Below are positions 34,000 to 64,000 of a stretch of DNA of 64,000 nucleotides, piece by piece (within the stretch, counting starts at the first letter, position 1; every line of letters begins with the position of its first letter). Source of the DNA: a bacterium (GTDB taxonomy: Bacteria; Bacteroidota; Ignavibacteria; Kapaibacteriales; UBA7675); contig JAUIKM010000022.1 of the NCBI GenBank assembly GCA_030430495.1, forward strand, positions 1 to 64,000, given 5' to 3'. The notes beneath the pieces were generated by a model, which was given only the letters and a program-made list of their open reading frames with translations, had not been told where the DNA came from and did not search any database. Position numbers and translations under genes: made by a program.

Positions 34000-34587
34000 A
34001 TGCATTCAAAGGCGGAAATGAGTTTGTCCAAACACGAGTATCAGGACCGGGGCGACGAGGAATTGTTCGCCATGGTCCAGGAGAATGATCAGCAGGCTTT
34101 CAGCGTGCTGTACGAACGCTACAACAGGCGTCTGTACAGTTATTGCCTGCGCATGCTCGGCAGCCACGCGGCGGCCGAGGACATTTTCCACGATGTATTT
34201 GTCAAAGTCTACGACAATCGCCAGTCCTTCCGGGGCGGCAGTTTTGTCAAGTGGCTGTTCACAATTGGCAGAACGACCTGTCTGAATGCCATCCGCGACC
34301 GAAAACACGCTGATGATGTTAACGACCTGAAAGACCTGCTTGTCGGCAGCGATTCGAGCAAAACGGGCGAGAACCTGTTTGTACGCGAGGCGCTGCGCAA
34401 GGCAATCGCCGGACTACCGCCCGAATTCAGGGAAGTGTTGATCCTGAAGCAGTTCAACGAATATTCTTATGACGAGATATCGGACATTACGGGAATTAGT
34501 ATCTCTTTAGCCAAGGTACGGGTTTTCAGGGCGATCAAGATGTTGCAGAAGACGCTTGCGCCCTACCTGAGGGATGTAAAAAAATGA
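34000..34587 (+). CDS. RNA polymerase ECF-type sigma factor
   Basis: 195 residues. Region 2 is at about 30-100 (AFSVLYERYNRRLYSYCLRM, SHAAAEDIFHDVFVKVYDNR), and region 4 at about 130-185 (AIAGLPPEFREVLILKQFNEYSYDEISDITG, LAKVRVFRAIKMLQK). This is the architecture of ECF sigma factors such as SigW/RpoE. Start codons at 34000 or 34018 are both possible. The next gene overlaps by four bases (ATGA at 34584-34587), marking it as the partner and probable regulator. The upstream region (33879-33999) should carry the promoter; no clear consensus was recognised. Confidence 0.95.
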   Translation: MHSKAEMSLSKHEYQDRGDEELFAMVQENDQQAFSVLYERYNRRLYSYCLRMLGSHAAAEDIFHDVFVKVYDNRQSFRGGSFVKWLFTIGRTTCLNAIRDRKHADDVNDLKDLLVGSDSSKTGENLFVREALRKAIAGLPPEFREVLILKQFNEYSYDEISDITGISISLAKVRVFRAIKMLQKTLAPYLRDVKK

Positions 34588-35741
34588 CGAACGACGAGCT
34601 TTTAGCCAAACTATATGACGGCACGCTGACGGAGGCAGAACAGGATGTGTTGCAGCAACGCATCCAGGAATCGCCTGAATTTGCCGGCGAAGTCGCAGAA
34701 TTCGAGACGGTGGTCGAACTCATGGAGACATCCAGCGAGGACGACGAGCCGAAACCCGCGCTTTTGCGGACGACGAAGGAAAAAGTGATCGCGCTGATCG
34801 GCGCGGCGGCAGGCACAGCAACAATCGGCGGTGCAGCCTCACAGATGGGCGGCGGACTGTTTACTTCGGTGCTGTTCAAATGGATCGCCGGCGTCGTCGG
34901 TGCACTGACGTTCGGCGGGCTGGTATTCTGGGCCGTGAACGACAGCAACGACGACGGCGACCTTGCACAGAACGATCAGGTGCAGGTGGAACAGCCGGCT
35001 GATGCGACGGAGCAGGTTGACGCGACCGGATCCGAGACAAACGCGCCGGACATGGACGGAGCACAATTTGACGAGCCCGACCTGACCAACGACGCCGACA
35101 GCAATCCGGACAACACGCCGGATCCTTTGCACACAGACGTCGATCCTGCGGATGCGGACATTTCCCAGCCGACAAATGGCGGCGACAACGACCCCGATGA
35201 AGATCCGGAACAGGAAGGCAGCTGGAAAGTGGCCGGCATGGATCCGGATCACGACGCACTCTTGCTGGCCGTTCCGCGTGAGCGCAAAGCATTGGAAATG
35301 ATGGAAGCGCTCGACAGCGCCACCGGACAGGCCTTTTACATGACGCGCCTGGCGGGTCGATTGGCGCGATTGCAGGAATACGATGAAGCTTATGCACAAG
35401 CCGACGAGGCGGTTGCCATCTACCGACAACACAACAACGACGCCGATCTGGCCAGGGCGCTGTATGCACGGGCGGCTTCTTCGGTAGGACTTGACAATCT
35501 GGCTTCAGCCGAACAGGATCTCGACGAAGCGGAACGCCTGGCGAGCGGCGGCAACCTGACAGAACTGCGCGGCAAGATCGCCGGACAGCGCGGGCTGCTG
35601 GCTTTGGCGCGCGGCGACCTGCAAGGTGCGCTGCAAGGCGTGACCGCCTGCGTGACCGTGCTCGAGAGTTCGCGCGGTGAAGAACTGCGCAGCTGGCAAA
35701 AATGGCAGAACGTCATCCGTCAACGCATTGAAGAACAATAG
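34584..35741 (+). CDS. Single-pass membrane protein, probable anti-sigma factor with TPR-like C-terminal domain
   Basis: 385 residues. The N-terminal 50 residues (MTNDELLAKLYDGTLTEAEQ) resemble short cytoplasmic anti-sigma segments with no zinc motif. A membrane helix lies at about 94-116 (LFKWIAGVVGALTFGGLVFWAV), followed by an acidic, Asp/Asn/Pro-rich linker to about 212. From about 225 the sequence looks like tetratricopeptide repeats (AFYMTRLAGRLARLQEYDEAYAQADEAVAIYR, then RALYARAASSVG). The ATG overlaps the sigma-factor stop, so the genes are translationally coupled. Periplasmic TPRs in an anti-sigma factor would suggest protein sensing; this is inference. Confidence 0.65.
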   Translation: MTNDELLAKLYDGTLTEAEQDVLQQRIQESPEFAGEVAEFETVVELMETSSEDDEPKPALLRTTKEKVIALIGAAAGTATIGGAASQMGGGLFTSVLFKWIAGVVGALTFGGLVFWAVNDSNDDGDLAQNDQVQVEQPADATEQVDATGSETNAPDMDGAQFDEPDLTNDADSNPDNTPDPLHTDVDPADADISQPTNGGDNDPDEDPEQEGSWKVAGMDPDHDALLLAVPRERKALEMMEALDSATGQAFYMTRLAGRLARLQEYDEAYAQADEAVAIYRQHNNDADLARALYARAASSVGLDNLASAEQDLDEAERLASGGNLTELRGKIAGQRGLLALARGDLQGALQGVTACVTVLESSRGEELRSWQKWQNVIRQRIEEQ

Positions 35742-36762: not shown

Positions 36763-37215
36763 ATGTCACGTTTAACACTTATCATCGCACTGATGTGTTT
36801 TGCAGTCACGACGTCGTCAGCCATTGAGAATGTCACAGTCGAGATTATTGAATGCGGCGGCGGCAAATTGGGCTTCAACATCAAATACCTCAATGGAGAC
36901 GGAACACTTAAGTGCTCTTCCAGTCGCGATTGCAACGGCAACGATGTCTCAGACTGCACTCCCGACGATTTTGCTTCGAATGTCGCCATTCACGCTCAGA
37001 GTGGGACCGTAGTGACCGTATCACATGATTGGGATGCCGACTACAGTATCGTGAATCTTGCAACGGATCTGGAAGTGTACGCCCATCCGACGACTGAAAC
37101 CGGCGGTATTCCTTTTGATCTGGATATTGCCGGACTGGCGCCAGGCGATTACGCCGTCGTGGCGGTTCACCCGGTGACGGAAGTTCTTCAGGGAATCACC
37201 GTATTCAGAATCTGA
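36763..37215 (+). CDS. Small secreted protein of unknown function
   Basis: 150 residues. The ATG at 36763 follows CAGGAG at a good distance and opens a signal peptide (MSRLTLIIALMCFAVTTSSA). The mature part has four Cys (ECGGG, LKCSSSRDCNGN, SDCTPDD) that could form two disulfides, then a beta-rich tail, for example GTVVTVSHDWDAD and PGDYAVVAVHP, which looks like an immunoglobulin-type or fibronectin-like strand pattern. I recognise no family. It stands alone, with a large hairpin 170 bases downstream, in a gene-poor stretch shared with two other small secreted Cys-containing proteins. Confidence 0.75.
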   Translation: MSRLTLIIALMCFAVTTSSAIENVTVEIIECGGGKLGFNIKYLNGDGTLKCSSSRDCNGNDVSDCTPDDFASNVAIHAQSGTVVTVSHDWDADYSIVNLATDLEVYAHPTTETGGIPFDLDIAGLAPGDYAVVAVHPVTEVLQGITVFRI

Positions 37216-38074
37216 GTTTGCCTTGGTCGGCAAACCTGGCATTTCCAGCGCAGCATTGCACAATTCAACGCAATGGTGGATGTGGCGTCACGCTGATCGA
37301 AGTACAGGGCGTTTTGTCCGAGCCGACTCCGGACAGGATGCCGAACATTCGGCTGTAGCACGCCTGGCAGCTTTCAGCCTGACCAACTGCGCCGATTCGA
37401 ATCCAGGCGGAACACCATTAACGTGTCCCGACACGATTCGAATCGGCGCATTGTTGTATTTGACCGCGCAGACTGGTTTAACGCTTAAACAATAGCCAGG
37501 AGCATGGTCACGCGCATCACGATGTCACACTCCTGCCTGGCTGCCGAGACAACACAAAACTCACTTTGCAGCTGATGTCAAACAGCAAACACCGTGACTC
37601 GCCGGCATTTGTGTGGAGTCTCCCGACTGACTGGATTTACAATCAGCACTGAACTGAATGCCAGGATACCGACAACACTCCGGAAGATGTGAGCGGACGA
37701 TTCTACAATCACTGCAAACTCCGCTTTGCAAATTCCGGGCACAATAGCGATAAAGCTAAGGAACCTGGAACAAGCTGGGCGCGATGTGGTCAGGCGCCGG
37801 ATAAAATTGTCTGTCAACATGGAGTCAGACATAGAAAAAAACTACGAGCAGACCAGAATTACATGCCGGCTTTCGAGCGGCGCAGGATTACGCCAGGGGA
37901 GAGAGCAACGTCAAATTGTTGGAGCGCATTAAAAAAATAATTGACAAATGCTGGTTTTGCGGTTATTTTAGTCGGACACACTGCCAACCGACGCGCATTT
38001 GCACCATTTACTGCTTACCTGCAGATGTCGCCGCATAACCAACATTTTCATTCTTTCCTTAATCGGAGCTTTCC
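37216..38074. other. Gene-free stretch between small secreted-protein genes
   Basis: About 859 bases. No frame with both start signal and plausible protein was seen. The main feature is the hairpin at 37388-37450; GTTTAAC is at 37476-37482. The promoter of the Cys-rich tandem genes should lie at the right end. Confidence 0.45.
37388..37450. repeat. Perfect 16-bp inverted repeat with 31-base spacer
   Basis: Left arm TGCGCCGATTCGAATC (37388-37403) and right arm GATTCGAATCGGCGCA (37435-37450) are exact reverse complements. The spacer can form a small inner hairpin (GTGTC/GAC AC), and the stem can extend with a bulge (CAAC / GTTG). It is followed by TTGTTGTATT rather than a clean T run. Terminator, attenuator, or ends of a tiny mobile element are all possible. 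Confidence 0.6.
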
Positions 38075-38437
38075 ATGAAACGCTTCTTGGGTTTCCTTGT
38101 GGTCGCAATGCTGGCCGCCCCCATGTTTGTAGCCAATGCCGCCGAAACTACCACAAAATCCGACAAAGTTCTGGCAACCGCCGTCGTCTGCTCGGACGTT
38201 AAAATGGTAACAGCCGAAAGTGATCCTTTTCCTTGCGACGCCGGTCCTGATGTTGTTGCACGTGCCGAAGAAAAAGCCTGCGAGCGCGCACTGCGCAAAG
38301 CACAAGACGAATGCATCGATACAACCGACGAGTGCTTCGTTGAAACAATCGAATGTGTAACGCAACGACGCGTACTCGACAACGGCGAATGTATCGTCGT
38401 AGCGAAACTTAGCTATCGCTGTTGTTGCTACCACTAA
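38075..38437 (+). CDS. Small Cys-rich secreted protein, paralogue A
   Basis: 120 residues. The ATG at 38075 follows a CGGAG box and opens a signal peptide (MKRFLGFLVVAMLAAPMFVANA). The mature 95 residues contain ten Cys: VCSDVK, FPCDAG, KACER, DECID, DECF, IECV, GECI and a C-terminal RCCC. Conserved pieces shared with the next gene include CSD.K, D.FPCDAG.DVV, RALRKAQDECI, and the RCCC end. It has a weak hairpin 19 bases after the stop. Family unknown to me; likely disulfide-stabilised and exported to the periplasm or surface. Confidence 0.8.
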   Translation: MKRFLGFLVVAMLAAPMFVANAAETTTKSDKVLATAVVCSDVKMVTAESDPFPCDAGPDVVARAEEKACERALRKAQDECIDTTDECFVETIECVTQRRVLDNGECIVVAKLSYRCCCYH

Positions 38438-38455
38438 TGTGACATTAAACAGGAG

Positions 38456-38476
38456 GACGGCGAGGTTTCGTCGTCC
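38456..38476 (+). terminator. Possible terminator between the Cys-rich paralogues
   Basis: A stem GGACGGCGA / TCGTCGTCC (one wobble) 18 bases past the stop, then TTCTGCATTT. The T tract is poor, so it may be leaky. Confidence 0.4.
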
Positions 38477-38668
38477 TTCTGCATTTACCGAACGCACGCC
38501 GTATTTAACGAGCAAACAGACTACAACGCCATACACCTGATACCGCCATTGCAATTCAATGTGGCGGACGGAATGTTGCATGCCTGAAGACTTTATCGAG
38601 GGTGACTTCCGGTGTGCAATACCAGTAACAATCACTTCAAACTGTTTAACCATCATTGGAGTAAATCC

Positions 38669-39028
38669 ATGCAACGCATCAAACTGTTTCTTGTAGCGGC
38701 CTTTTTGTTTACCCCGCTCGTGATGCTCAATTCAGCCGAGCAGCCACAGACGAAAGAAGTCGCTACCGCTGCGGGAGTCGAGTGCTCAGACCTCAAAACC
38801 AGCAGCGCGCGCAGCGATACGTTTCCCTGCGATGCCGGTGACGACGTGGTGAAAGCCGCCATTCAACAGGCGTACGACCGCGCACTGCGCAAAGCCCAGG
38901 ACGAGTGTATTCCCGTCACGGACAATTGTTGGGTCGAGGTGGAGCAAAAAGAAGCGACTATCGTGACCTTGGACAGCGGCAAATGCGTGGCGGTAGTCGG
39001 CATTCGCTGGCGCTGCTGCTGCACCTGA
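38669..39028 (+). CDS. Small Cys-rich secreted protein, paralogue B
   Basis: 119 residues; the ATG at 38669 opens a signal peptide (MQRIKLFLVAAFLFTPLVML), preferred over an upstream start that would add 19 hydrophilic residues before it. The mature part has eight Cys and aligns along most of its length with paralogue A: ECSDLK, SDTFPCDAGDDVV, RALRKAQDECIPVTDNC, SGKCVAV, RWRCCC. Two Cys of paralogue A are missing (the KACER and IECV ones), as expected if they pair with each other. Paralogues are 232 bases apart. It ends at a strong hairpin shared with the convergent kamA-like gene. Confidence 0.82.
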   Translation: MQRIKLFLVAAFLFTPLVMLNSAEQPQTKEVATAAGVECSDLKTSSARSDTFPCDAGDDVVKAAIQQAYDRALRKAQDECIPVTDNCWVEVEQKEATIVTLDSGKCVAVVGIRWRCCCT

Positions 39029-39098: not shown

Positions 39099-39131
39099 AC
39101 ACGGGGCGCGGATAGTATCCGCGCCCCGTGT
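39099..39131. terminator. Bidirectional terminator hairpin between convergent genes
   Basis: A perfect 15-bp stem, ACACGGGGCGCGGAT / ATCCGCGCCCCGTGT, with a 3-base loop, 71 bases past paralogue B and 25 bases past the stop of the KamA-family gene. T tracts are modest (ATTTCTTT on plus, CTTTTAAA on minus), but the stem is very strong. Confidence 0.75.
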
Positions 39132-39155: not shown

Positions 39156-40466
39156 TCAGTGCACCAACACAGCGTCGCCGTCGACTCCCTGGTCGAAGAA
39201 AAATTCATCCTTGTCAAATGCGGGTTCCAGATCATCCAGCCAGACGGCGTCGGGGTCATAGCGCGCGAAGAACGGTTTGTAGACCCAATCGGGATTGCGC
39301 CCCTGGATAAACTGCAGAACAAAGACTTTTTCATTGTTTACATCTGTAACGCCCAGAATGTGAACTTTGCCGGGATCGGCGGACATGCTGGGACCGCGCA
39401 CCGTGCGTCCGATGCCACTGACCCGCTTTACACCTTCCCGATAAATGCGCCAGGCTTTGTCCAGTTCCACAGCAAAGTAGTTCTGTGCACCGGTATCTCG
39501 CGCAACAAACATATAATATGGGATGCAGCCGAGTTTCAGTTGTTCACGCCACATTTCCGTCCAGGCGGCGCTATCGTCATTGATGTACTTCATCACCGGC
39601 GACTGCGTGCGAATCTGCGCACCGGTGCCCAGAATGCGGCGAACAGCCTTTTGTACGGCTTCGGTTTTTAACTCATTCGGATGATTAAAATGCGCCATAA
39701 GCGCCAAATGACGCCCGCTCTTAACAATCTTTTCAAAAAGTCGCAGCATATCATCGGCGTCTTTATCTGTTAAAAACTTATACGGCCAATAGCTTAGTGA
39801 CTTCGTACCGATGCGAATTGTACGCAGACTTTCTATGTCGGCGGCCAAAAGCGGATCGATATAGTTCGAGAAGTTTTTGGCCGACATCACCATGGGGTCG
39901 CCGCCCGTAAACAGAACATCCGAGACTTCCGGATGCTCCTGCAAATACGCCGTTAACAATTCCGTTTCGCGCATTGCAAATTTCATTTCATCCATACCGA
40001 CGAATTGCGGCCAACGGAAGCAGAAAGTACAATAGGCGTGGCAGGTTTGACCGTTGCTCGGGAAAAACAGGAGCGTTTCGCGATACTTGTGCTGAATGCC
40101 GGTTAATTTAACTCCATCCAGTTCCGGCACATTATCCTGTTGGCCGGCGGGATGTGGATTCAATTCAAAGCGGATTTCATTGGCGACGGCGGCGATTTCG
40201 GCCTTCCCCGGACTGCGCCGCAATACCGACTCCATTCGCGCAAAGTGGTCATCAGACAGCATGCCACGCTGAGGGAATGTTAATTGAAACAGAGGATCAT
40301 TCGGGATATCCGACCAGTCGATCAGCTCATCAATGACATAGTTGTTAACTTTGAACGGCAAGACGTTTCCAACAACTTCAATCGCATGTTTTTCGCCATC
40401 AGACAGATACTTCTGAACCTGGTCAATTTTCCTGAAATTTCTGAGTGAATATACTCGATATTTCAT
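39156..40466 (-). CDS. KamA-family radical SAM protein (lysine 2,3-aminomutase-like)
   Basis: 436 residues. The radical SAM cluster motif CxxxCxxC is seen as CHAYCTFCFRW at about residue 142, with a GGDP motif (LFTGGDPMVMSAKN) shortly after, as in lysine 2,3-aminomutases that use PLP and a deoxyadenosyl radical. The lysine that binds PLP in KamA may be in MSADPGKV (about 380), since the family's PGGGGK is not seen as such. N-terminal and C-terminal parts fit shorter members common in Bacteroidota. Whether it acts on lysine is uncertain; no lysine-fermentation genes lie nearby. Divergent neighbour regions are gene-free. Confidence 0.85.
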   Translation of the reverse strand: MKYRVYSLRNFRKIDQVQKYLSDGEKHAIEVVGNVLPFKVNNYVIDELIDWSDIPNDPLFQLTFPQRGMLSDDHFARMESVLRRSPGKAEIAAVANEIRFELNPHPAGQQDNVPELDGVKLTGIQHKYRETLLFFPSNGQTCHAYCTFCFRWPQFVGMDEMKFAMRETELLTAYLQEHPEVSDVLFTGGDPMVMSAKNFSNYIDPLLAADIESLRTIRIGTKSLSYWPYKFLTDKDADDMLRLFEKIVKSGRHLALMAHFNHPNELKTEAVQKAVRRILGTGAQIRTQSPVMKYINDDSAAWTEMWREQLKLGCIPYYMFVARDTGAQNYFAVELDKAWRIYREGVKRVSGIGRTVRGPSMSADPGKVHILGVTDVNNEKVFVLQFIQGRNPDWVYKPFFARYDPDAVWLDDLEPAFDKDEFFFDQGVDGDAVLVH

Positions 40467-43642: not shown

Positions 43643-46600
43643 TTAATTAACCACAAATGGGCGGGTAATGGCTGCATCACCCACACTCACGAGGCAAAAA
43701 TACACACCAGCATTTGCAATTGCGGCATCGGGAAAGGAATTAAGCCCATTGGCCGGGATTGAGGCACTGTAAATACTGCGCCCCAGAGAGTCGAAAATTT
43801 CGAGCGTACCACCGCCATCCGGCATACCGCGGACGTCCAATTCCAGCGGATCGCCGACATTCATCGGAGAATTTGTCACCGTGACATAAAGCATGCCGGG
43901 CACGGGATTGATGAGATAGCGCGAGCTGATGCCTGTGATAAGCAGCACACCACCCTGCGACTGCGTAAAATCAAGCGGCTCCACTTCTCTGCCGTTGGAA
44001 TCGGTTACGGAAGCCTCAACGATTTCAAAAAAGCCGGTCGTTGAATTGCCCCAACCGGTCATCATGGGAATCGTTGCAAGCTCCGTCTGTGCCGGCGGCA
44101 GCACGGTGTCGATGCGAATAGCGGCACGTGCGCGATCGCGGCGCGACTCCAGGCCGGGATCCACCGGAGCGAGAATCGTGGAGTTGTACTCCAGTTCAAA
44201 ATTCAACCGGTACTCACCGACGTCAAAGCCGTCGGAGGAGTTCAGGGAGACGATGACGTCAATGGTGTCGCCAAACTCAACAATTCCGGACCGGACGGCA
44301 AAACCGAGACTGTAGGAATTGACAAAATCCATCCTGATCGTCACGGTCGCCGTGGATTCACCGCAGGGCGTATCAAAAATCACTTGCAACGTCGAGTTGT
44401 CGACATCCTGTGTCGGAGCCAGGCGGAAGGACAGCTCACATGTTTCACCTGATTCCAGGTCGCGCGGGAGGTCCTGCTGATTCAGCAGTACAAGACCGAC
44501 GGGCAGATTGTCCACGGCAGTCAGGCGCACGGTTGCATCGCCGGAATTGACGACCGCCAGTACGGCCGTGCCCGCGGCGCCGCGTCGCACGGCGCCGAAG
44601 TCGATGAAGTCGGCGACATCAATGGGGCCGATTTTTTTGATAACGGGGTTGAACTCCAGCGTATCCTGCAGACCGCACTGTTCATATGTTATTATCATAC
44701 GCAGCGGCGCGGAGCTCGCCGGCTTTTCGATACGGAACGCAATCTCGGCGGCGGCATCGGGCAGAATTTCTTGCGGCGCGGAGATCGGCAGCACTTCACC
44801 GGAGAACGACAGGTTCAAGGGTAAGACGCCTGTATTGCGAATCTCAAAGACGCCGTCATAGGGAAACTCACAGTCAAAGATTTCGGGCTCGAGGTCGGGC
44901 GCTGTCAGGACTCGGCCGATGTCCAGCAGATTGGCGCGCATTTCAGCTTCGAGCAGGTTGGACTCGACGCAGTTTGCGGCTGTATACTCGACGCTGAGCG
45001 TTTCGGATGTCTGGCCGACAAAGACAAGGCCGGGTTCAATCAAAACAGGGATAAGCAGCGTTTCGGTTGCGTCAAGAAATCTCGGCGTGCTCAGATCGAG
45101 GTCGACCTGGAAAGGCGGCGCAATTTCAACGCGAAAGACATTCAGCCCGACGTCGGGCGGTGCGGTCAGTCGCAGGGTGTCGAACATGACGGCGGAACAG
45201 CGTGCAAGCGAGCCGAAATCGACGAGGCGCGGTTCGAGGCGCGGCCGTTCTCCCCGCACGTCGGCCATGACGGTCATACTGCGCGTCATGTCGCATTCTT
45301 CAAACTTGATGTGAGCACGAACATCCACGAGCCCCGCGACTCCGGGCGAGTACGCAATTGACAAACCCGCCGTTCCACCGGGCGGGATCGGGTTCGGCGA
45401 CGTGCCGACGAGCGAAATACCGGGATCGGCCGACTGCAGATCGCGCACGGTCAGGTCGACAGGCGATTCGTTGCGCAATTCGATCAGCCCCAGCGCGCTG
45501 AGATTACAGGTCTCGATCAATCCCAGATCGAGCGTGTCTGAGGCGACAAAACGCACCTGTGCGGGATGAATGACCCGCAGCACGGCTTCAATGGTGTAAG
45601 CTGTATCGTTGCAGTACGATACGGCGGCGCGGATACGACGCCCGTCGTTTTCAGCGCTGGTGTTGGGACGCAGACGCTTGCTTCTGGCGGATCCGGGAAC
45701 GACACTCCAGTCGCTGGACCCCGGGCGTCGCCACTGCCACTCGATTTCGGCTTCGTTCGGTAGATTGGCGCCGACGTCAAATGAAAATTCGGCCTGTTCA
45801 CCGGCGCAGACCACCTGGGATTGCGGCTGCTGGATAAATTCAATGGCCGGAAAAATGTCAATGGATTCGGACATACTGTAGGCAGTACAGCCGTCAAGCG
45901 TAACGAGATAAACGCGATAACGCCAGCCGTCGCGGGTATCATCCTCGACATTGAACGAAAGCGTGGTGCCGGTTTCGCCGGGCACAAGCTCAAAGTCGGC
46001 GGGATTGCCTCGATTGACTTTGTCGACTTCCCAGCGCACGAGTATTTCGCGATCTTCAATATCGGTTGGCTGGGCTATGCGGAGAACGACGCGCGAACCG
46101 ATGCAGAAGGATCCACCGCCAATCAGGACCGCATCAAGCGCATTGACATGCAGCCGAATGGGCTCGCCGGCGGTTGTATCACACTCATTGGCATATACTG
46201 CGCGGTAGTATTTCTTGTCGTTTTCAGGCCCAACCTGACGCGGCGGATTTTTACCGATTGACGTCCATGAGTTGGGCAGCGCGGTCGGGCTTTCTTCCCA
46301 ATGTAAAAAACGCGGCTCCGGATACCCTTCGGCAACGGCAAATATGGCGGGCGAAGTACCCACACATACAATGGTATCTGCCGGAGACTGTGACTGTGGG
46401 TCGATGCGCGGCGGTGTATAGATATTAAATGTTGCATCCGACCTGTCAATGATCCGGTTTGTGGTCGGGCTGACAAGAACGACGCGGAAATCGCCGTCCT
46501 CTGGGAAACCAGGCGGCAGGGTCACGTCCCAGGGAATTGTGCCGATGGTCACATCAACATTGTCGGCAATGATTGCCGTCATACCGCTGCGCTCATCCCG

Positions 46601-48802
46601 CAGCCTGATATTGATGGTCGGCTCGCGGAAAATGCCTTCCCAACGAATCGCGACGCTGGTCCCGGCACAGAAAAATCCTCCGCCATTGGGCGCCAGAAGC
46701 TCCAGGCCGAGACGAAGGTGCGTGACAAACGCATCATTGGAGGTCGGATCAAGGTGGCGCGGCTGCATGGCGCCGGGAGAAACCGGGAACACCGACCCGG
46801 CGGACGTGGTGAAACCAGCCAAATAAAAACGGCCGATTCCGTCGCTGACAACCGCGGTCGCTTCGTCGGTCTGATTGCCGCCGAAGTAACTTGCATAGGT
46901 TATCTGAATGTCGTCGTACGGCGTCATCATGATCATCCAGGCGTCGGAAGACCCGCCCGCAAAAGAGGGATACTCGGCATTGGCGGTCACGTCAAAACTG
47001 TTTGAGGCGGTCGATCCAACGACTATGACATTCTGGAAAGGATCGAGCGTCAGGTCGGTCAGACGAGTAAAGTCGACGCCGGCGGTTTTGTGGCCGAGGT
47101 AGCTGGAATAGTCGACAATTCCGAGCCCCGGCTTCATTTTTACGACCACGGGATTGGTATCGGAACCGCCCGAATCAGAGTAGGCATTTTTGGGCGGGAA
47201 ACCGCCGCCCTGATTGTTGCCTCCGATCAATACCGCGCCATTGTCGAACACAACAATGGAACCGGCGCTTTCGTGGCCGGGGCCGCCCCAATACGTTGAA
47301 TTGTTCAAACTGGAAACATCGCTGCTGATGCAGGAAACAAACATGTCCCTGCCGCCCTGCCAGTCAAGCTGCGCCGCACCGGGGCGCACGGGGAAGCTGT
47401 CCGAGCTCGTTTCACCGGCGATGTAGATGTTGCTGCTTCCGACGTTGATCGCATTTCCCCGGTCTGCACCCCCGCCGCCCAGGAAGGTTCCCAGCGAGGG
47501 GATGATTGCACGCGCTGCGCCCGGATTAATCAGAAAGCGCACATAAATGGCGTCTTCACCGCCGGCATTGTCTGGTTGAACCACGCCGCCCACGATGCCG
47601 GGCAGTTTGATCGAGGTGGACGATCCGACGCAGTGCAGAACATTGGAACGAATTGCGATGTCTTCAATTCCGTCCAGCCCGGCGCCGCCGTAGTACGTGC
47701 CGTGGATAAAATCCATGTCGTCGCGCAACAAAAGCAAAAATGCGGCGCGCGCGCCCAGACCGGCAAAATCGGGTTGTGAAGCTTCCGCGCTCGTCGGAAA
47801 ATCGCCGGACTGCGTCCATCCGCAGACCAGCACGTTGCCGTCGGCCATTACGGCAATCGACGTCGCCACATCCACCCTGGAACCGCCGTACACGGCCGTT
47901 GCCTCAACGCGGTCGCCTGATGCGGAAAGACGAGTGACAAAAATGTCGGTATTTGTGTGTGGGCTTTTGTACACCCCCGTAAAATCCGGGAATATTTGTG
48001 AGGTCGTCGTCCCGGTCAGGTAGAGTTTGCCGCCGAACAGCGCCACGTCCGTCGGGCGGTCGTCGCCGTAGCCGCCCAGATAGGTGCTGTAGATCAACGG
48101 GTCAATTATAAGTTCGCGCGTGGGGTCGTAGTCTCCAGGTTCGAAGCCAATCAAAAAGTCATCCCGGAGCACAAATCGGCAGTCGACGCGTTCGTGCGAA
48201 CCATCGGGATTCAGTTGATAGGCGTAGAGATTGCGGTGTTCAAGCGGTCCAAAAGCCGTGTGTAAAATCAGCGTAGTGTCGGAGTCCAGCTTCAGAGCGG
48301 CGACGCCCTCGTAAACTATCCCGATCTGTGCGGGGTCCGCGCCGGGACTCAGGTGGAAGTCGTAGCGCGGCCGACCGTTCTCGATGTTCAGCGCCAGGTC
48401 CACGCCGCGGTACAAGTCCTGAATCTCGACAGCCGAATAGGCCGCGGCGGACGCAGAGAACGACGCCGACCTGTAGCTGCGCTCGTATTGCGCAATGCCG
48501 ACGGGCACCGCCCGCGCCGAGGTATGCGCCCCGACAAACCGCATGCGCGCCACATGGCCGCGCCTCTCAGATTCCCGATCCTCATATCGATCGATTGTCA
48601 AAGCGGAATCGGAAACCCACAGGTCCATGCCCGGCAGTCGACACATAAAACGCGCTTCCGGCGTCCACTGTCCGCCATTGGAATAGAAAACCGATTCCGC
48701 CGGACGCACCGAGGACAGCTCCGCAGTTTCTGCGCACAGCGGTAGCAGGCCGAAATTCAGCAGCGTGAACAAGGTTCCTATGCGAGCGTAGATGGAGCGC
48801 AT
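43643..48802 (-). CDS. Giant multidomain secreted protein: SBBP repeats, Ig-like domains, T9SS sorting domain
   Basis: 1719 residues. The ATG at 48802 opens a signal peptide (MRSIYARIGTLFTLLNFG); a start 23 codons earlier is possible but Pro-rich. After an N-terminal domain (about 30-235), SBBP-type beta-propeller repeats run to about 700 (YSTYLGGYGDDRPTDVAL, then repeated AVYGG, TYYGG, SYLGH, SYFGG strands). Ig-like domains follow (about 700-1080), then choice-of-anchor-D-like segments (about 1080-1500), a cohesin-like stretch near 1520-1610, and a T9SS sorting domain (LEIFDSLGRSIYSASI, NAGVYFCLVSVG). Likely a surface adhesin or matrix protein. It heads an operon with the OmpA protein gene. 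Confidence 0.82.
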   Translation of the reverse strand: MRSIYARIGTLFTLLNFGLLPLCAETAELSSVRPAESVFYSNGGQWTPEARFMCRLPGMDLWVSDSALTIDRYEDRESERRGHVARMRFVGAHTSARAVPVGIAQYERSYRSASFSASAAAYSAVEIQDLYRGVDLALNIENGRPRYDFHLSPGADPAQIGIVYEGVAALKLDSDTTLILHTAFGPLEHRNLYAYQLNPDGSHERVDCRFVLRDDFLIGFEPGDYDPTRELIIDPLIYSTYLGGYGDDRPTDVALFGGKLYLTGTTTSQIFPDFTGVYKSPHTNTDIFVTRLSASGDRVEATAVYGGSRVDVATSIAVMADGNVLVCGWTQSGDFPTSAEASQPDFAGLGARAAFLLLLRDDMDFIHGTYYGGAGLDGIEDIAIRSNVLHCVGSSTSIKLPGIVGGVVQPDNAGGEDAIYVRFLINPGAARAIIPSLGTFLGGGGADRGNAINVGSSNIYIAGETSSDSFPVRPGAAQLDWQGGRDMFVSCISSDVSSLNNSTYWGGPGHESAGSIVVFDNGAVLIGGNNQGGGFPPKNAYSDSGGSDTNPVVVKMKPGLGIVDYSSYLGHKTAGVDFTRLTDLTLDPFQNVIVVGSTASNSFDVTANAEYPSFAGGSSDAWMIMMTPYDDIQITYASYFGGNQTDEATAVVSDGIGRFYLAGFTTSAGSVFPVSPGAMQPRHLDPTSNDAFVTHLRLGLELLAPNGGGFFCAGTSVAIRWEGIFREPTINIRLRDERSGMTAIIADNVDVTIGTIPWDVTLPPGFPEDGDFRVVLVSPTTNRIIDRSDATFNIYTPPRIDPQSQSPADTIVCVGTSPAIFAVAEGYPEPRFLHWEESPTALPNSWTSIGKNPPRQVGPENDKKYYRAVYANECDTTAGEPIRLHVNALDAVLIGGGSFCIGSRVVLRIAQPTDIEDREILVRWEVDKVNRGNPADFELVPGETGTTLSFNVEDDTRDGWRYRVYLVTLDGCTAYSMSESIDIFPAIEFIQQPQSQVVCAGEQAEFSFDVGANLPNEAEIEWQWRRPGSSDWSVVPGSARSKRLRPNTSAENDGRRIRAAVSYCNDTAYTIEAVLRVIHPAQVRFVASDTLDLGLIETCNLSALGLIELRNESPVDLTVRDLQSADPGISLVGTSPNPIPPGGTAGLSIAYSPGVAGLVDVRAHIKFEECDMTRSMTVMADVRGERPRLEPRLVDFGSLARCSAVMFDTLRLTAPPDVGLNVFRVEIAPPFQVDLDLSTPRFLDATETLLIPVLIEPGLVFVGQTSETLSVEYTAANCVESNLLEAEMRANLLDIGRVLTAPDLEPEIFDCEFPYDGVFEIRNTGVLPLNLSFSGEVLPISAPQEILPDAAAEIAFRIEKPASSAPLRMIITYEQCGLQDTLEFNPVIKKIGPIDVADFIDFGAVRRGAAGTAVLAVVNSGDATVRLTAVDNLPVGLVLLNQQDLPRDLESGETCELSFRLAPTQDVDNSTLQVIFDTPCGESTATVTIRMDFVNSYSLGFAVRSGIVEFGDTIDVIVSLNSSDGFDVGEYRLNFELEYNSTILAPVDPGLESRRDRARAAIRIDTVLPPAQTELATIPMMTGWGNSTTGFFEIVEASVTDSNGREVEPLDFTQSQGGVLLITGISSRYLINPVPGMLYVTVTNSPMNVGDPLELDVRGMPDGGGTLEIFDSLGRSIYSASIPANGLNSFPDAAIANAGVYFCLVSVGDAAITRPFVVN

Positions 48803-49089
48803 ACCACGTAATATGATGATCGTTCTGAGCGGCCGGAGTAAGGCGGGCGGCGGCAGTTCCGACCGGGGCACGCTGAGTTTCGAACACGGAAGATACGAGC
48901 CTCCCTCCTGAAAATCAACACCGGTACAACTATATTACCAGCTTTCGCCGGACCGGCTATGAAGGCCTCAATCGCCGTTTAAGTCAAGACTACCGGCGCG
49001 TTCCTTTCAATTAGCCGCCCAACTCCGTAATTTGCATAATGACCACGTGAAGTGGCCTGTCGTTTCAACACCTCTCGAACCGGACCAGT

Positions 49090-52806: not shown

Positions 52807-53649
52807 CTAGAATAGTCTTTCTTGTGAGTCTTTTGGTGGATAAAAAACACCGACGATGACAAATGGATTGGGTGCACGTTTATTGTGAAACTCCCAGGTA
52901 GTTCCCATCAACAATGTTATATCGTATTTGCCGCTTAGCACGAATTCATCCCAATATTTGTGTCTCACCATCTCAACCGCTTTCTGTTTGTCGCCATTCG
53001 ATATCTTTAAACAGTTGCGATAAAGTGCACCTATCTCCCAGTCCTCGATCATTGCAGTTCTCTCTTTCCCGCTCTCATCCAGATACTTGTACGAAAACTT
53101 GAAAGGAATTTTTTCGGCGAGTTTAATCTCATCCTCAACTTTGTCGTCGTTGAAGAGACTTAACTGAGCCTTTTCCCGCACCAGTTGATCCAATACCTTT
53201 TTCGACCAATCCGGATTGACCGGCTTATCCACAAATTTCGTCAGTTTCCTTGGTTTAAATGCTGCCAAAGACAGTCGATTGGAATGAGCGAGTTCGATCA
53301 ACTCACCTATACTGTCATACAATGTCACTCTTTCAAGAAAATGTGCGCGACGTCCAGACCAATTTCCGTCGGTGGGGATTGGGTTGCCGAGAATCTTGAT
53401 TTTACTATTGACAATCTTGTAGCTTTCCGGGCGACTATCTCTGGTTGATTTTTCAATCTCCGCTTCAACCCACTGATATTTTTTGTATTGTTTGTCCAAG
53501 ACAAGCTACCGGAACGGAACCGGGTATAGTCGCCGCCACTCCCCGTCCTCGTTGACTCCCGCAGTGCAGACCAGCTCCGTATATTTTTGAGATGGCGTGG
53601 GATAGGTCTTTACGGTAATGAGTATTCGTTCAGTTTTCGTTTTGGACAT
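52807..53649 (-). pseudogene. Conserved hypothetical protein with internal amber stop
   Basis: An ATG at 53649 starts MSKTKTERILITVKTYPT, then TELVCTAGVNEDGEWRRLYPVPFR. An in-frame TAG at 53508-53506 follows. The frame then continues for 232 codons as LVLDKQYKKYQWVEAEIEKS, with DSRPESYKI soon after, to the stop at 52807. This order (VKTYP, LVCTAG, RLYPVPFR, KKYQW, RPESY) is what I remember for an uncharacterised protein family of about 280 residues, so one gene is split by a nonsense mutation, or the stop is read through, or a TTG at 53499 restarts translation. It overlaps the upstream DUF488 gene by 40 bases. Confidence 0.7.
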
Positions 53650-54551
53650 AGGTGCCGTACCTTAACTTGAAAGTTCTTTTTCAGATAATCGCTGACGCAG
53701 TGCCTGTGACAGCTTTCTGCTTCTTTTTCGAAACAAGTTAATGCGATTTTTTTATTCAAGGCAAGCAAATTCATCACCTCTTCAAGAGCATTTTTACGGT
53801 TCGGCAAGTCATTTTCATATATACTGAACAACTGCAAATAATCGTCGGGGTTGTGCAAGTCTTTCCGAAGACTGGATTCAATGCCCAGCTCTGGAACGTG
53901 GCAATAGCAGATTCCAACTTTACCGAGGAGTGTTTCCAGACTAAACTGCGAGAATCCATACTTGCGACTGAGGGGATTATTCCGAACATCGCAAACCATT
54001 TTTACATCATTCATCAACAGGCAGTTGATATAATCTTCAATGTGTACACCTTCGTATCCAATGGTGTAGAGAGTGTCCCGTTCTTCGACATTGATTTTAG
54101 CAGAGACCAGTGCTTCAACATTCTGTAGTTCATGCTCCTTCAGCACACGGTGTTTGATTTCACTATGCCGGGTGTACCATGGATGATCCAGATATACTTT
54201 GCGCAACAACTCATTTCCGCGAAGTCGGTGCGTATCCAACCATTGACCAACATCTTTCGCTGTTGATCCAGCTTGATACCATGCGGAATCACTTATCGAA
54301 TCGGCCAGCCTTACTGCTCTTTCATCCATCTCCAGCCAGCCTCGTTTGCCCAAAAGTTCCAGATCGTCAGCCGCCAAAAAGGAATAACAGCCGAATTTAT
54401 ACGGAACAAACGAGTAAAATGGATTTCGGCGCTGCTCCTGGTGTAAAAACAGCAATTTCTGAAAATCCATTCGAGTCAATTCACCGCCGGCCTTGTCGAG
54501 CAGGATCAGCAGAAGTCTTTGACGATGATATACGGGAGGAGTTTTTGACAT
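53610..54551 (-). CDS. DUF488 domain protein with extra N-terminal domain
   Basis: 313 residues; ATG at 54551 (MSKTPPVYHRQRLLLIL) preferred to one 15 codons earlier. Residues about 165-300 are the DUF488 domain: DTLYTIGYEGVHIEDYINCL, VCDVRNNPLSRKYGFS, HVPELGIESSLRK and the LTCFEKEAESCHRHCVSDYL Cys/His block. The N-terminal 100 residues (GGELTRMDFQKLLFLHQEQ, FVPYKFGCYSFLAADDLELLGKRGWL) resemble the Panacea/SocA-like antitoxin fold, which is an inference from pattern only. DUF488 proteins often occur in defence or nucleic-acid-linked settings. Its stop lies inside the following gene (40-base overlap), so they are translationally coupled. Activity unknown. Confidence 0.75.
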   Translation of the reverse strand: MSKTPPVYHRQRLLLILLDKAGGELTRMDFQKLLFLHQEQRRNPFYSFVPYKFGCYSFLAADDLELLGKRGWLEMDERAVRLADSISDSAWYQAGSTAKDVGQWLDTHRLRGNELLRKVYLDHPWYTRHSEIKHRVLKEHELQNVEALVSAKINVEERDTLYTIGYEGVHIEDYINCLLMNDVKMVCDVRNNPLSRKYGFSQFSLETLLGKVGICYCHVPELGIESSLRKDLHNPDDYLQLFSIYENDLPNRKNALEEVMNLLALNKKIALTCFEKEAESCHRHCVSDYLKKNFQVKVRHLCPKRKLNEYSLP

Positions 54552-54688
54552 CGCAGTAAATACACCAACAATTTGGCTGAGACCGAAGCGCAACAATCCG
54601 CTTTTTGCGGCGCAGGAATAGATATACTACAATGACCTGAGAAACGGAAATGCAAATCTGAATCGGCAGCCGTAGCTGCCGATATTAA

Positions 54689-61884: not shown

Positions 61885-62619
61885 TCAGGTTCTTCGTACT
61901 GCGGCTGCCAAAGCAAACCCCAGCGATTCAAAAAATGCAAGCGGAGCTGTTTCGGAGTCAAAACTTGAACAAGGTTTCTGCGCGTCACTTTGAACGTCAC
62001 TTAATATGAGACTCGCTTGCGAATACAGCCGCTCCTTCATCAGCTTGTGACAAAGCAACCCGTAACGTTGAACATAGGACGACCGCTCGAATTCCGGCAA
62101 GACAGGAAAGTGAGGAGATTTCAACTTCACTACTGTATTTGACTTTTCCGAGTTTTCCAGCAACATCAGATAACCCAGAAAAGGAGCAGAAGACTGCATG
62201 TAAACATTTTCGCGGAATGACGTCCAAAAATCGGTCGCCGCACCTATAGCCTCTTCGCACCTGTTGTTGAAATTATTGCCAAAAGAAGGTCCGATATGAG
62301 ACTTGAATTCGAGAGCTGCTACAAGTTGGCCGCCGTTAACAACAACTACATCCCAGCGCTTTAACGGTCGAAAAAAGCCGGGAAGACCGACATCGCCGGG
62401 GCGAACCATGACATCAGCCTCTTTAATCCCGCATGCCACGGCAATTTGTTTTGTCAACTCCACAAAACCATCCATGTTTCGGCCCGAGGTTACAGATGCG
62501 CGCTCCCCTTGATCACGCCTCCCGGACTCTGCTTGTTTTTCCCTGGCACTACGACGAGCAAGCCAAAATTGGCTGACCGCACTATCGATCCATTGTTTTA
62601 TTTCTTCTGCTGGAATCAT
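61885..62619 (-). CDS. Type II restriction endonuclease, PaeR7I/XhoI-like (CTCGAG)
   Basis: 244 residues. The ATG at 62619 is preferred to a TTG two codons upstream. Strong family landmarks: FWLARRSAREKQAESGRRDQ, RASVTSGRNMDGF, GDVGLPGFFRPLKRWDVVVV, and LEFKSHIGPSFGNNFNNRCEEAIG, where the Asp and the Glu-Phe-Lys form the PD-ExK-type nuclease core. PaeR7I cleaves CTCGAG; this specificity is inferred. It lies 13 bases downstream of its methyltransferase on the same strand, so methylation protein is made from the same transcript. Codon use is A/T-richer than the neighbours, hinting at transfer. Confidence 0.9.
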   Translation of the reverse strand: MIPAEEIKQWIDSAVSQFWLARRSAREKQAESGRRDQGERASVTSGRNMDGFVELTKQIAVACGIKEADVMVRPGDVGLPGFFRPLKRWDVVVVNGGQLVAALEFKSHIGPSFGNNFNNRCEEAIGAATDFWTSFRENVYMQSSAPFLGYLMLLENSEKSNTVVKLKSPHFPVLPEFERSSYVQRYGLLCHKLMKERLYSQASLILSDVQSDAQKPCSSFDSETAPLAFFESLGFALAAAVRRT

Positions 62620-62632
62620 AATCAACTAAGTA

Positions 62633-64000
62633 TCAACTGGAATAATCTGAGAGTAGCGACCAATCGGAAGCGCTGAATCCAAAAAGCCTCTGCACAGCCC
62701 GGTCCGCCCTATCCTCATCCTGATCTATGGCAGCCTGTCGAAGTTCTCGCTTAACACCTTCTTCTACAGACACCCACATTGGCAATCGCAGCCTCCGAAG
62801 GTACTGAGCCTGAAACCTCAAGTACCCACCTCTCATTTTTGTTGAATACAATTTGATGACAAACCGACACACTGTAGATGATAGTACTGCTTGCAAAGCC
62901 CGAATATCCCATTCGGCGGTAGTGACAAAATACAGATTATGATGGGGATAAAATTCGCCTGTGTCCAATGTTACTTGCGGCGAACCTTTAATGTCCGGAA
63001 TCAAGAGTTTTGGAACAAACTGCAGAGACTGGTGTATCTTGTCAATAGTTCGATACCATTTCAATGGATTTCTTTTAGCCACATTGCGACTGCGAATTAC
63101 ATCTTCGTGCTGTGCAATGTATTTTGCGAAATTCGGGTAGTGTTCAAGGTGAATTAAATTGCCGAACTCGTCAAAAGGGTTCAGCACGTATCTTCGCTTC
63201 CACTCAATGCGTCCGCCTTTGATGTCCGAAGTCATTACAAGCGGCAATAGCCGATCGGGCTCAATATCGACGTTATTAAACTCACTGATATATACTTTAT
63301 CCGCACCGGTTGCAACTCCAATGCCAACTTTACATCGCACGTTTTCGATTGGTTGGAAGGCACGTTCGTATCGCTCAAGAATTTTTCTAAGCTTGCGTGA
63401 ATTAAACAACCAGGGACTATCACCTGGGGTCAACTTGACTGACGCATCAGACTCAGATGTTTCACCTCGCGTCATTGAATCTGCAACGGAATCAAAAGAC
63501 ATTTCTGAATAGTTTGTCGCCTTCGGACTGCAATTCTGAATCACCGTAATCGCAGGATATGCAATCACGGCTTCCTGAAACACTGAATTTCCGTTAACAC
63601 CTACCACATTTTTCAGATGAAAATCTGCTGAAATCATTTTTCGGAGCGGTCCGCCATAGCGATTTTTCATCCACCGGTCATTACAGATGAATGCCAGCAC
63701 TCCATCTGGGTTCAACAAATCCAACGACTTCTCAAAGAATGGTATATAAAGATCGGCGCGATCAAAAAACGTCTTGAATCTGCGACGATACTCCAGTAGT
63801 TTGTGATGTTCGATATTTTCCTGCCTTACGTAGGGAGGATTACCCACGATGAAGTCAAACTTCAAATCGATACTATCCAATAAAAAGTCAGCGTGAACCA
63901 CCCAGCTGGAAACAAGACGTTCAATGTCCTCAGCGCTCCAACCTTTTTCGCACAACAGATCTGCAATCTTACGTCGCAGTATCACGCATGATCCTCTGGA
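62633..64000 (-). CDS. N6-adenine DNA methyltransferase (Eco57I/PaeR7I-type), C-terminal part, cut by window edge
   Basis: At least 455 residues, with the reading frame open to the window edge, so the N-terminus and the SAM-binding FxGxG motif lie outside. The catalytic motif IV NPPY is visible in FDFIVGNPPYVRQENIEHHKLL. The next part (LLNPDGVLAFICNDRWMKNRYG) and the C-terminal target-recognition-like region (DIKGGRIEWKRRYV, YFVTTAEWDIRALQAVLSS, LRFQAQYLRRLRLP) agree with adenine methylases that pair with PaeR7I-type nucleases. It would modify A in CTCGAG. It ends 13 bases before the nuclease start. Confidence 0.88.
   Translation of the reverse strand, partial: SRGSCVILRRKIADLLCEKGWSAEDIERLVSSWVVHADFLLDSIDLKFDFIVGNPPYVRQENIEHHKLLEYRRRFKTFFDRADLYIPFFEKSLDLLNPDGVLAFICNDRWMKNRYGGPLRKMISADFHLKNVVGVNGNSVFQEAVIAYPAITVIQNCSPKATNYSEMSFDSVADSMTRGETSESDASVKLTPGDSPWLFNSRKLRKILERYERAFQPIENVRCKVGIGVATGADKVYISEFNNVDIEPDRLLPLVMTSDIKGGRIEWKRRYVLNPFDEFGNLIHLEHYPNFAKYIAQHEDVIRSRNVAKRNPLKWYRTIDKIHQSLQFVPKLLIPDIKGSPQVTLDTGEFYPHHNLYFVTTAEWDIRALQAVLSSTVCRFVIKLYSTKMRGGYLRFQAQYLRRLRLPMWVSVEEGVKRELRQAAIDQDEDRADRAVQRLFGFSASDWSLLSDYSS

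What the first reader, a model, noticed from the sequence alone, without database searches (positions are those of the whole stretch)
38075..39028. Tandem paralogous Cys-rich secreted proteins ending in RCCC
Two adjacent genes encode 120-aa proteins that share a leader, CSD.K, D.FPCDAG.DVV, RALRKAQDECI and a terminal RCCC. They differ by one Cys pair, as expected for a duplicated disulfide-stabilised domain. I recognise no family. Candidates: toxin/bacteriocin, metal-binding scavenger, adhesin or extracellular matrix component.
Basis: partly seen in the sequence, partly recalled or inferred. Interest (0 to 1): 0.72.

Follow-up and report, generated by a model that had tools for sequence, protein, structure and literature searches.

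The report
Disulfide-rich exported proteins in Kapabacteria
Two neighbouring genes make small exported proteins packed with cysteines; they are old, selectively preserved duplicates and belong to a previously undescribed family of at least ten proteins found so far in only two related environmental bacteria, probably rigid disulfide-stapled binding or structural parts of the cell envelope rather than toxins.

Summary
Genes A (38075-38437, 120 aa) and B (38669-39028, 119 aa) are real, 47% identical and share a signal peptide and the motifs listed. They differ by one Cys pair (C69/C94 in A only). Synonymous sites are saturated while dN is about 0.52: ancient duplicates under purifying selection. 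No Pfam, NCBIfam, PHROGs, PADLOC or PDB-sequence family covers them. They are not alone. Weak profile hits, checked by eye and iterated, show a family of 10 proteins (16 domains): 7 genes, 11 domains in this genome and 3 genes, 5 domains in a same-family Candidatus Kapaibacterium genome. None was found in the third family genome, nor convincingly elsewhere. All ten mature proteins have an even Cys count, and close relatives differ by 0 or 2 Cys, which points to fully disulfide-bonded domains. AlphaFold gives a confident strand-strand-helix-hairpin core, nearest in arrangement to YbjQ/DUF74, dodecin and RcsF, but the match is not statistically decisive and there is no sequence link. Function is inferred: a non-enzymatic, disulfide-stapled envelope binding or structural domain. 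Nothing supports a toxin. An orphan family of moderate interest.

The parts
38075..38437 (+). Gene A: exported Cys-rich protein, 120 aa, 10 mature Cys
   Evidence: profile members
38075..38140 (+). Gene A signal peptide MKRFLGFLVVAMLAAPMFVANA (AxA cleavage motif, no lipobox)
   Evidence: read from the translation; no signal-peptide predictor was available
38279..38281 (+). Cys69 codon, mid-helix, only in gene A; probable partner of Cys94
   Evidence: (helix 58-80)
38354..38356 (+). Cys94 codon, middle of strand 87-100, only in gene A
38420..38428 (+). Gene A terminal Cys triplet (C116-C118) at the end of the last strand
38450..38481 (+). Stable hairpin between the genes (14-pair stem), terminator-like but without a clear T run
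   Evidence: 83-nt fold -29 kcal/mol, z -3.4
38669..39028 (+). Gene B: exported Cys-rich protein, 119 aa, 8 mature Cys
   Evidence: profile members
38669..38737 (+). Gene B signal peptide MQRIKLFLVAAFLFTPLVMLNSA
   Evidence: read from the translation
39014..39022 (+). Gene B terminal Cys triplet (C116-C118)
39099..39131 (.). Strong 15-pair hairpin between gene B and the convergent radical-SAM gene; probable terminator for both
   Evidence: z -6.8
37941..37969 (+). Promoter-like TTGACA-17-TATTTT upstream of gene A (no more than chance would give)

Best explanation
Genes A and B are ancient, selectively maintained duplicates of a small exported domain that is fully disulfide-bonded. Shown or well supported: the domain is short strand, strand, long helix, then a long beta-hairpin ending in CCC or CCxC. 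It belongs to an undescribed family of one- and two-domain proteins restricted so far to two genomes of one Kapabacteria family. Inferred: after Sec export and oxidation the helix is pinned to the sheet by 4-5 disulfides (C69-C94 being an optional extra staple in A), giving a rigid, protease-resistant, non-enzymatic module. It most likely works by binding a ligand (envelope polysaccharide or protein partner) or by oligomerising in the periplasm or at the cell surface, with the paralogues specialised for different partners, much as DUF1471 proteins are thought to work in enterobacteria.
For: Family: profile searches find 11 domains in this genome and 5 in G002, with every full sequence read. 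A profile built without A and B ranks both as the next best of 4,071 frames (E 6e-4 and 1e-3) after the true members and before the first chance frame at 0.24. Disulfides: all ten mature Cys counts are even (8, 10, 10, 10, 20, 20, 20, 20, 22, 22) and close relatives differ by 0 or 2; exported bacterial proteins prefer even Cys counts (PMC7678975). Selection. Fold: AlphaFold core pLDDT about 94-98 over most of residues 41-118, with a dip near 81-90; best structural rows are DUF74 3qkb Z 8.1, YbjQ-type 1vr4 Z 7.9 and 1y2i Z 7.3, dodecins about 7, RcsF 6.1. DUF1471, RcsF, YbjQ and DUF74 share a fold, and DUF1471 is a multi-paralogue exported family with one or three domains; its member SrfN binds sulfated polysaccharide (PMC4092069). 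No non-Cys polar residue is invariant across the domains, which argues against an enzyme.
Against: No sequence link to any of those families. Foldseek found nothing below E 0.001, and Z about 8 can be a common arrangement. The model rests on only two sequences, and the two-domain homologue folded alone gave no usable model. The link between the window pair and the two-domain members rests largely on Cys positions: with Cys masked the score vanishes, and 1 of 2,000 Cys-preserving shuffles of B scored above the real B (0 of 2,000 for A). No conserved gene neighbourhood points to a ligand or pathway. VKOR, one known disulfide-forming enzyme, was not found in the three genomes; DsbA/DsbB were not tested.
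Confidence: 0.5

Rival explanations
1. Metal-thiolate protein: the CCC/CCxC cluster and other Cys bind Zn, Cu or another soft metal in the periplasm or outside, for scavenging or detoxification.
For: 8-10 Cys per single-domain protein with a terminal Cys triplet; the structurally nearest YbjQ protein is annotated as a putative heavy-metal binder.
Against: Cys counts are always even and change by 0 or 2, as expected for disulfides; His is scarce (0-4 per protein); no metal transporter or regulator was recognised near the copies examined, though neighbours were not systematically annotated.
Confidence: 0.15
2. Envelope stress or redox sensor working like RcsF: disulfide status or binding of a surface partner signals damage across the envelope.
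For: RcsF has two non-consecutive disulfides and an arrangement similar to this model (Z 6.1; PMC9907809); an ECF sigma factor gene lies about 3.5 kb upstream of the pair (34000-34587), and another sigma-like gene similar to it lies near the C50 copy.
Against: No lipobox and no partner genes (IgaA/RcsCDB-like) were recognised; hhalign finds no RcsF similarity; seven paralogues are more than one sensor needs; the ECF gene is not adjacent.
Confidence: 0.12
3. Small secreted antibacterial toxin or bacteriocin, with its paralogues forming a toxin set.
For: Small, Cys-rich, exported, tandem paralogues.
Against: Net acidic, no adjacent immunity or export gene recognised, not variable between copies as an arms race would give (purifying selection), no PADLOC or PHROGs match, and not in plasmid or phage records searched.
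Confidence: 0.06
4. The pair is not homologous to the two-domain proteins; the two groups are convergent Cys-rich exported proteins.
For: Most of the similarity lies in the Cys positions and the pair sits on a very long branch.
Against: Shared order strand-C-loop-C-helix-C-hairpin-C-CCC with matching spacing, same leader type, profile ranking above all other frames and above nearly all Cys-preserving shuffles.
Confidence: 0.12

Closest known systems
YbjQ/UPF0145 and DUF74 proteins
   Same: Predicted helix packed on an extended hairpin sheet; top VIA-align rows 3qkb, 1vr4, 1y2i (Z 7.3-8.1).
   Different: No leader expected in YbjQ/DUF74 (from my own knowledge), not Cys-rich, pentameric in crystals (PMC4092069); no sequence similarity detected.
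RcsF (outer-membrane stress-sensor lipoprotein)
   Same: Exported and disulfide-stabilised, with the same general arrangement (Z 6.1; PMC9907809).
   Different: RcsF is a lipoprotein with two disulfides and a known signalling partner set; here no lipobox, 4-5 predicted disulfides per single-domain protein, no sequence link.
DUF1471 (YhcN/BhsA/McbA) family
   Same: Small exported domain, several paralogues per genome, one or more domains per protein, RcsF-like fold (PMC4092069).
   Different: DUF1471 is an enterobacterial family poor in Cys; no Pfam match and no hhalign match to BhsA.
Dodecins, including calcium dodecin Rv0379
   Same: Helix-on-three-strand arrangement; Foldseek rank 1 (E 0.027) and Z about 7.
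   Different: Dodecins are about 67-residue flavin- or calcium-binding dodecamers (own knowledge for location and assembly) without the Cys framework.

Membership tests
YbjQ/UPF0145 and DUF74 | Match to the family sequence profile | tested here: not met
   No Pfam match for A or B at E 10 nor for 15 aligned domains at E 1 to such a family; hhalign to E. coli YbjQ probability 3% over 16 columns
YbjQ/UPF0145 and DUF74 | Same fold | tested here: inconclusive
   Z 7.3-8.1 with rmsd 3.2-4.0 A over 72-83 residues; Foldseek E above 0.001
YbjQ/UPF0145 and DUF74 | Pentameric assembly | not testable with these tools
   Needs purified protein
RcsF | Lipoprotein signal (lipobox Cys) | tested here: not met
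   Leaders of A and B end in ANA/A and NSA/E with no Cys; first Cys at residue 39
RcsF | Sequence similarity to RcsF | tested here: not met
   hhalign probability 0.2%; no Pfam hit
RcsF | Fold with two non-consecutive disulfides | tested here: inconclusive
   Z 6.1; disulfide pairing not observable, coordinates not available
DUF1471 (PF07338) | Match to the Pfam profile | tested here: not met
   No match; hhalign to BhsA probability 0.2%
Dodecin | Match to the dodecin sequence profile | tested here: not met
   No Pfam match
Dodecin | Flavin- or calcium-binding dodecamer | not testable with these tools
   Needs purified protein
The family described here (exported domain ending CCC/CCxC) | Cys framework C-C-helix-C-hairpin-C-CCC with exported leader and even mature Cys count | tested here: met
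   for all ten proteins; single domains vary at one or two of the Cys positions
Known anti-phage defence or phage families | Match to PADLOC or PHROGs profile | tested here: not met
   PHROGs for A and B; PADLOC for seven proteins

The most novel reading that the evidence does not exclude
A lineage-specific, disulfide-saturated version of the YbjQ/RcsF-type domain that acts as a modular redox- or metal-responsive envelope device, with the terminal Cys triplet as a switch. This would be a new exported redox-sensing or metal-handling module.
Probability: 0.1. Interest if true: 0.6.

Novelty: new variant of a known kind. Interest (0 to 1): 0.36.

Why it matters
It defines a family with no entry in Pfam, NCBIfam, PHROGs or PADLOC, in a little-studied branch of Bacteroidota, with 11 domains in one genome. 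The Cys gains and losses in pairs make it a neat natural series for how disulfides are added to a fold. If the fold is confirmed it would extend the YbjQ/RcsF/DUF1471 arrangement to heavily disulfide-bonded exported proteins. The biological role stays open, so the general interest is moderate.

Tried and rejected
Orphan pair: rejected. The first searches found nothing outside the pair, but two profile hits at E 4-5, read by eye, proved to be distant members once iterated. I first misread minus-strand hits as plus strand and dismissed G000:C17; rereading the right strand showed it is a member. Rejected as chance after reading: L003 (GroEL-like), L006, L010-L013, L017-L019, L038, L040-L042, L051-L053, L055, L065 (stops inside, wrong frame, unrelated protein, or too short); L054 rejected by its four in-frame stops. 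Viral-contig, plasmid and phage searches: nothing. PDB sequence search: only weak chance-level hits. Viral structure library: nothing significant. Folding the two-domain homologue alone failed (pLDDT 38). No operon partner or shared gene neighbourhood. Upstream regions were printed but show no obvious common regulatory motif by eye. VKOR not found.

Full report
What is there. Gene A (38075-38437) and gene B (38669-39028) lie in tandem on the + strand, 231 bases apart, each with an ATG, a GGAG sequence a few bases upstream, and a typical Sec leader. They align without gaps over 118 residues at 47% identity. Gene B is 119 aa from its ATG, not 120. A stable hairpin lies between the genes and a very strong one follows gene B, facing a convergent radical-SAM gene. 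I infer separate short transcripts; the promoter-like site upstream of A is no more than chance would give.

Real genes under selection. Third codon positions differ at 63%, second at 34%. dN is about 0.52, and dS is 2.1 or more and saturated, so dN/dS is about 0.25 or lower.

No known family. Pfam, NCBIfam, PHROGs and PADLOC give nothing for the pair, and the PDB sequence set gives nothing beyond chance-level hits for it or its profile. Scans of 84,980 species genomes and of viral contigs with conserved peptides from the pair found no relative. A single-protein search of 61 near genomes and profile searches of 395 phylum and 123 order genomes found no convincing one outside this genome.

A wider family. 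Two hits of the two-row profile in the window's own genome, E 4 and 5, turned out on reading to carry the same Cys framework. Iterating gave 11 domains in 7 genes here: the window pair; three tandem two-domain genes on contig C71 (211, 215 and 214 aa); a two-domain gene on C50 (232 aa); and a one-domain gene on C17 (125 aa). In G002, a genome of the same family, there are 5 domains in 3 genes. G002 matches the record 'Candidatus Kapaibacterium sp. isolate IP29b_bin.46' through a contig of the same length, 65,925 bases, which places the window in a Kapabacteria family. The third family genome, G001, has none. Searches of 123 order, 391 class and 395 phylum genomes with the larger profiles gave no other convincing member. 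The second genome-contig scan returned only the G002 gene. The distribution claim is limited by pattern stringency, MAG completeness and the closed metagenome collection.

Is the pair really a member? A profile made only from the 14 other domains ranks A and B directly after the true members among 4,071 reading frames (E 6e-4 and 1e-3), ahead of the first chance frame (0.24). Most of that signal is in the Cys positions. With Cys masked nothing remains, and of 2,000 Cys-preserving shuffles none reached A and one passed B. On the domain tree the pair is a long, well-supported twig. I take homology as probable, about 0.88.

Disulfides. Counting from residue 23, the ten mature proteins hold 10, 8, 20, 20, 20, 20, 10, 22, 22 and 10 Cys. 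All are even, about 1 in 1,000 if the counts were independent, which they are not entirely. A and B differ by two, C71 and its G002 orthologue by two, C50 and its G002 orthologue by two. A preference for even Cys counts is known for exported proteins (PMC7678975). In the model of A, C69 sits mid-helix (58-80) and C94 mid-strand (87-100), so the pair present only in A is a natural helix-to-sheet staple.

Fold. From only two sequences AlphaFold gives pLDDT around 94-98 over most of residues 41-118, with a dip near 81-90: strands 37-39 and 43-48, helix 58-80, strands 87-100 and 105-119. Foldseek against the PDB has no hit below E 0.001. VIA-align puts DUF74 3qkb (Z 8.1), YbjQ-type 1vr4 and 1y2i (7.9, 7.3), dodecins (about 7) and RcsF (6.1) at the top. 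Eletsky et al. report that DUF1471, RcsF, YbjQ and DUF74 share a fold (PMC4092069), so these rows are mutually consistent, but Z of this size can be a common arrangement. hhalign with the 15-domain alignment gives no sequence support for RcsF, YbjQ or BhsA (the unrelated control YcfJ likewise). I therefore say it looks like this fold, and do not file it in any of these families.

How it probably works. Shown: real genes, old duplication, purifying selection, wider family, even Cys counts. Inferred: Sec export, complete oxidation, a rigid helix-on-hairpin module, no catalysis (no invariant polar residue besides Cys), and a binding or structural job in the envelope. DUF1471 is the best functional analogue: small exported domains with many paralogues, tied to stress and biofilm, with one member binding sulfated polysaccharide (PMC4092069). 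Neighbourhoods give no further clue. Metal binding, an RcsF-like sensor and a toxin are weaker rivals. VKOR was not found in the three genomes; other disulfide catalysts were not tested.

Verdict. This is a new, narrow family, probably a variant of a known fold, of moderate interest.

Noticed in passing
window 61885-63985 (- strand): XhoI-type restriction endonuclease (PF04555, E 1.3e-75) next to an Eco57I-type methylase with TaqI-like specificity domain: a type II restriction-modification pair.
   Followed up: partly
window 53610-54596 (- strand): DUF488 protein (E 9e-24) with an unassigned 230-aa neighbour at 52807-53499.
   Followed up: partly
window 34000-35741 (+ strand): ECF sigma factor followed by a protein with an anti-sigma-like start and TPR-like region; a sigma-like ORF 30.6% identical to the ECF factor lies near the C50 family copy (L022:483-1256).
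   Followed up: partly
window 43643-48871 (- strand): 1742-aa protein with DUF7948 and SBBP beta-propeller repeats, possibly ending in a T9SS-type sorting domain (by eye).
   Followed up: no
window 39156-40466 (- strand): Radical-SAM protein resembling lysine 2,3-aminomutase, 63% identical to one in G002; the family pair is not next to it there (L070).
   Followed up: partly
window 36763-37215 (+ strand): 150-aa exported-looking protein with Cys in its N-terminal half and no family match above cut-off; not a member of the family described here.
   Followed up: no
L021:9406-11690: Three tandem two-domain members; the two gaps between them (about 180 bases each) hold terminator-like hairpins by eye.
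   Followed up: partly
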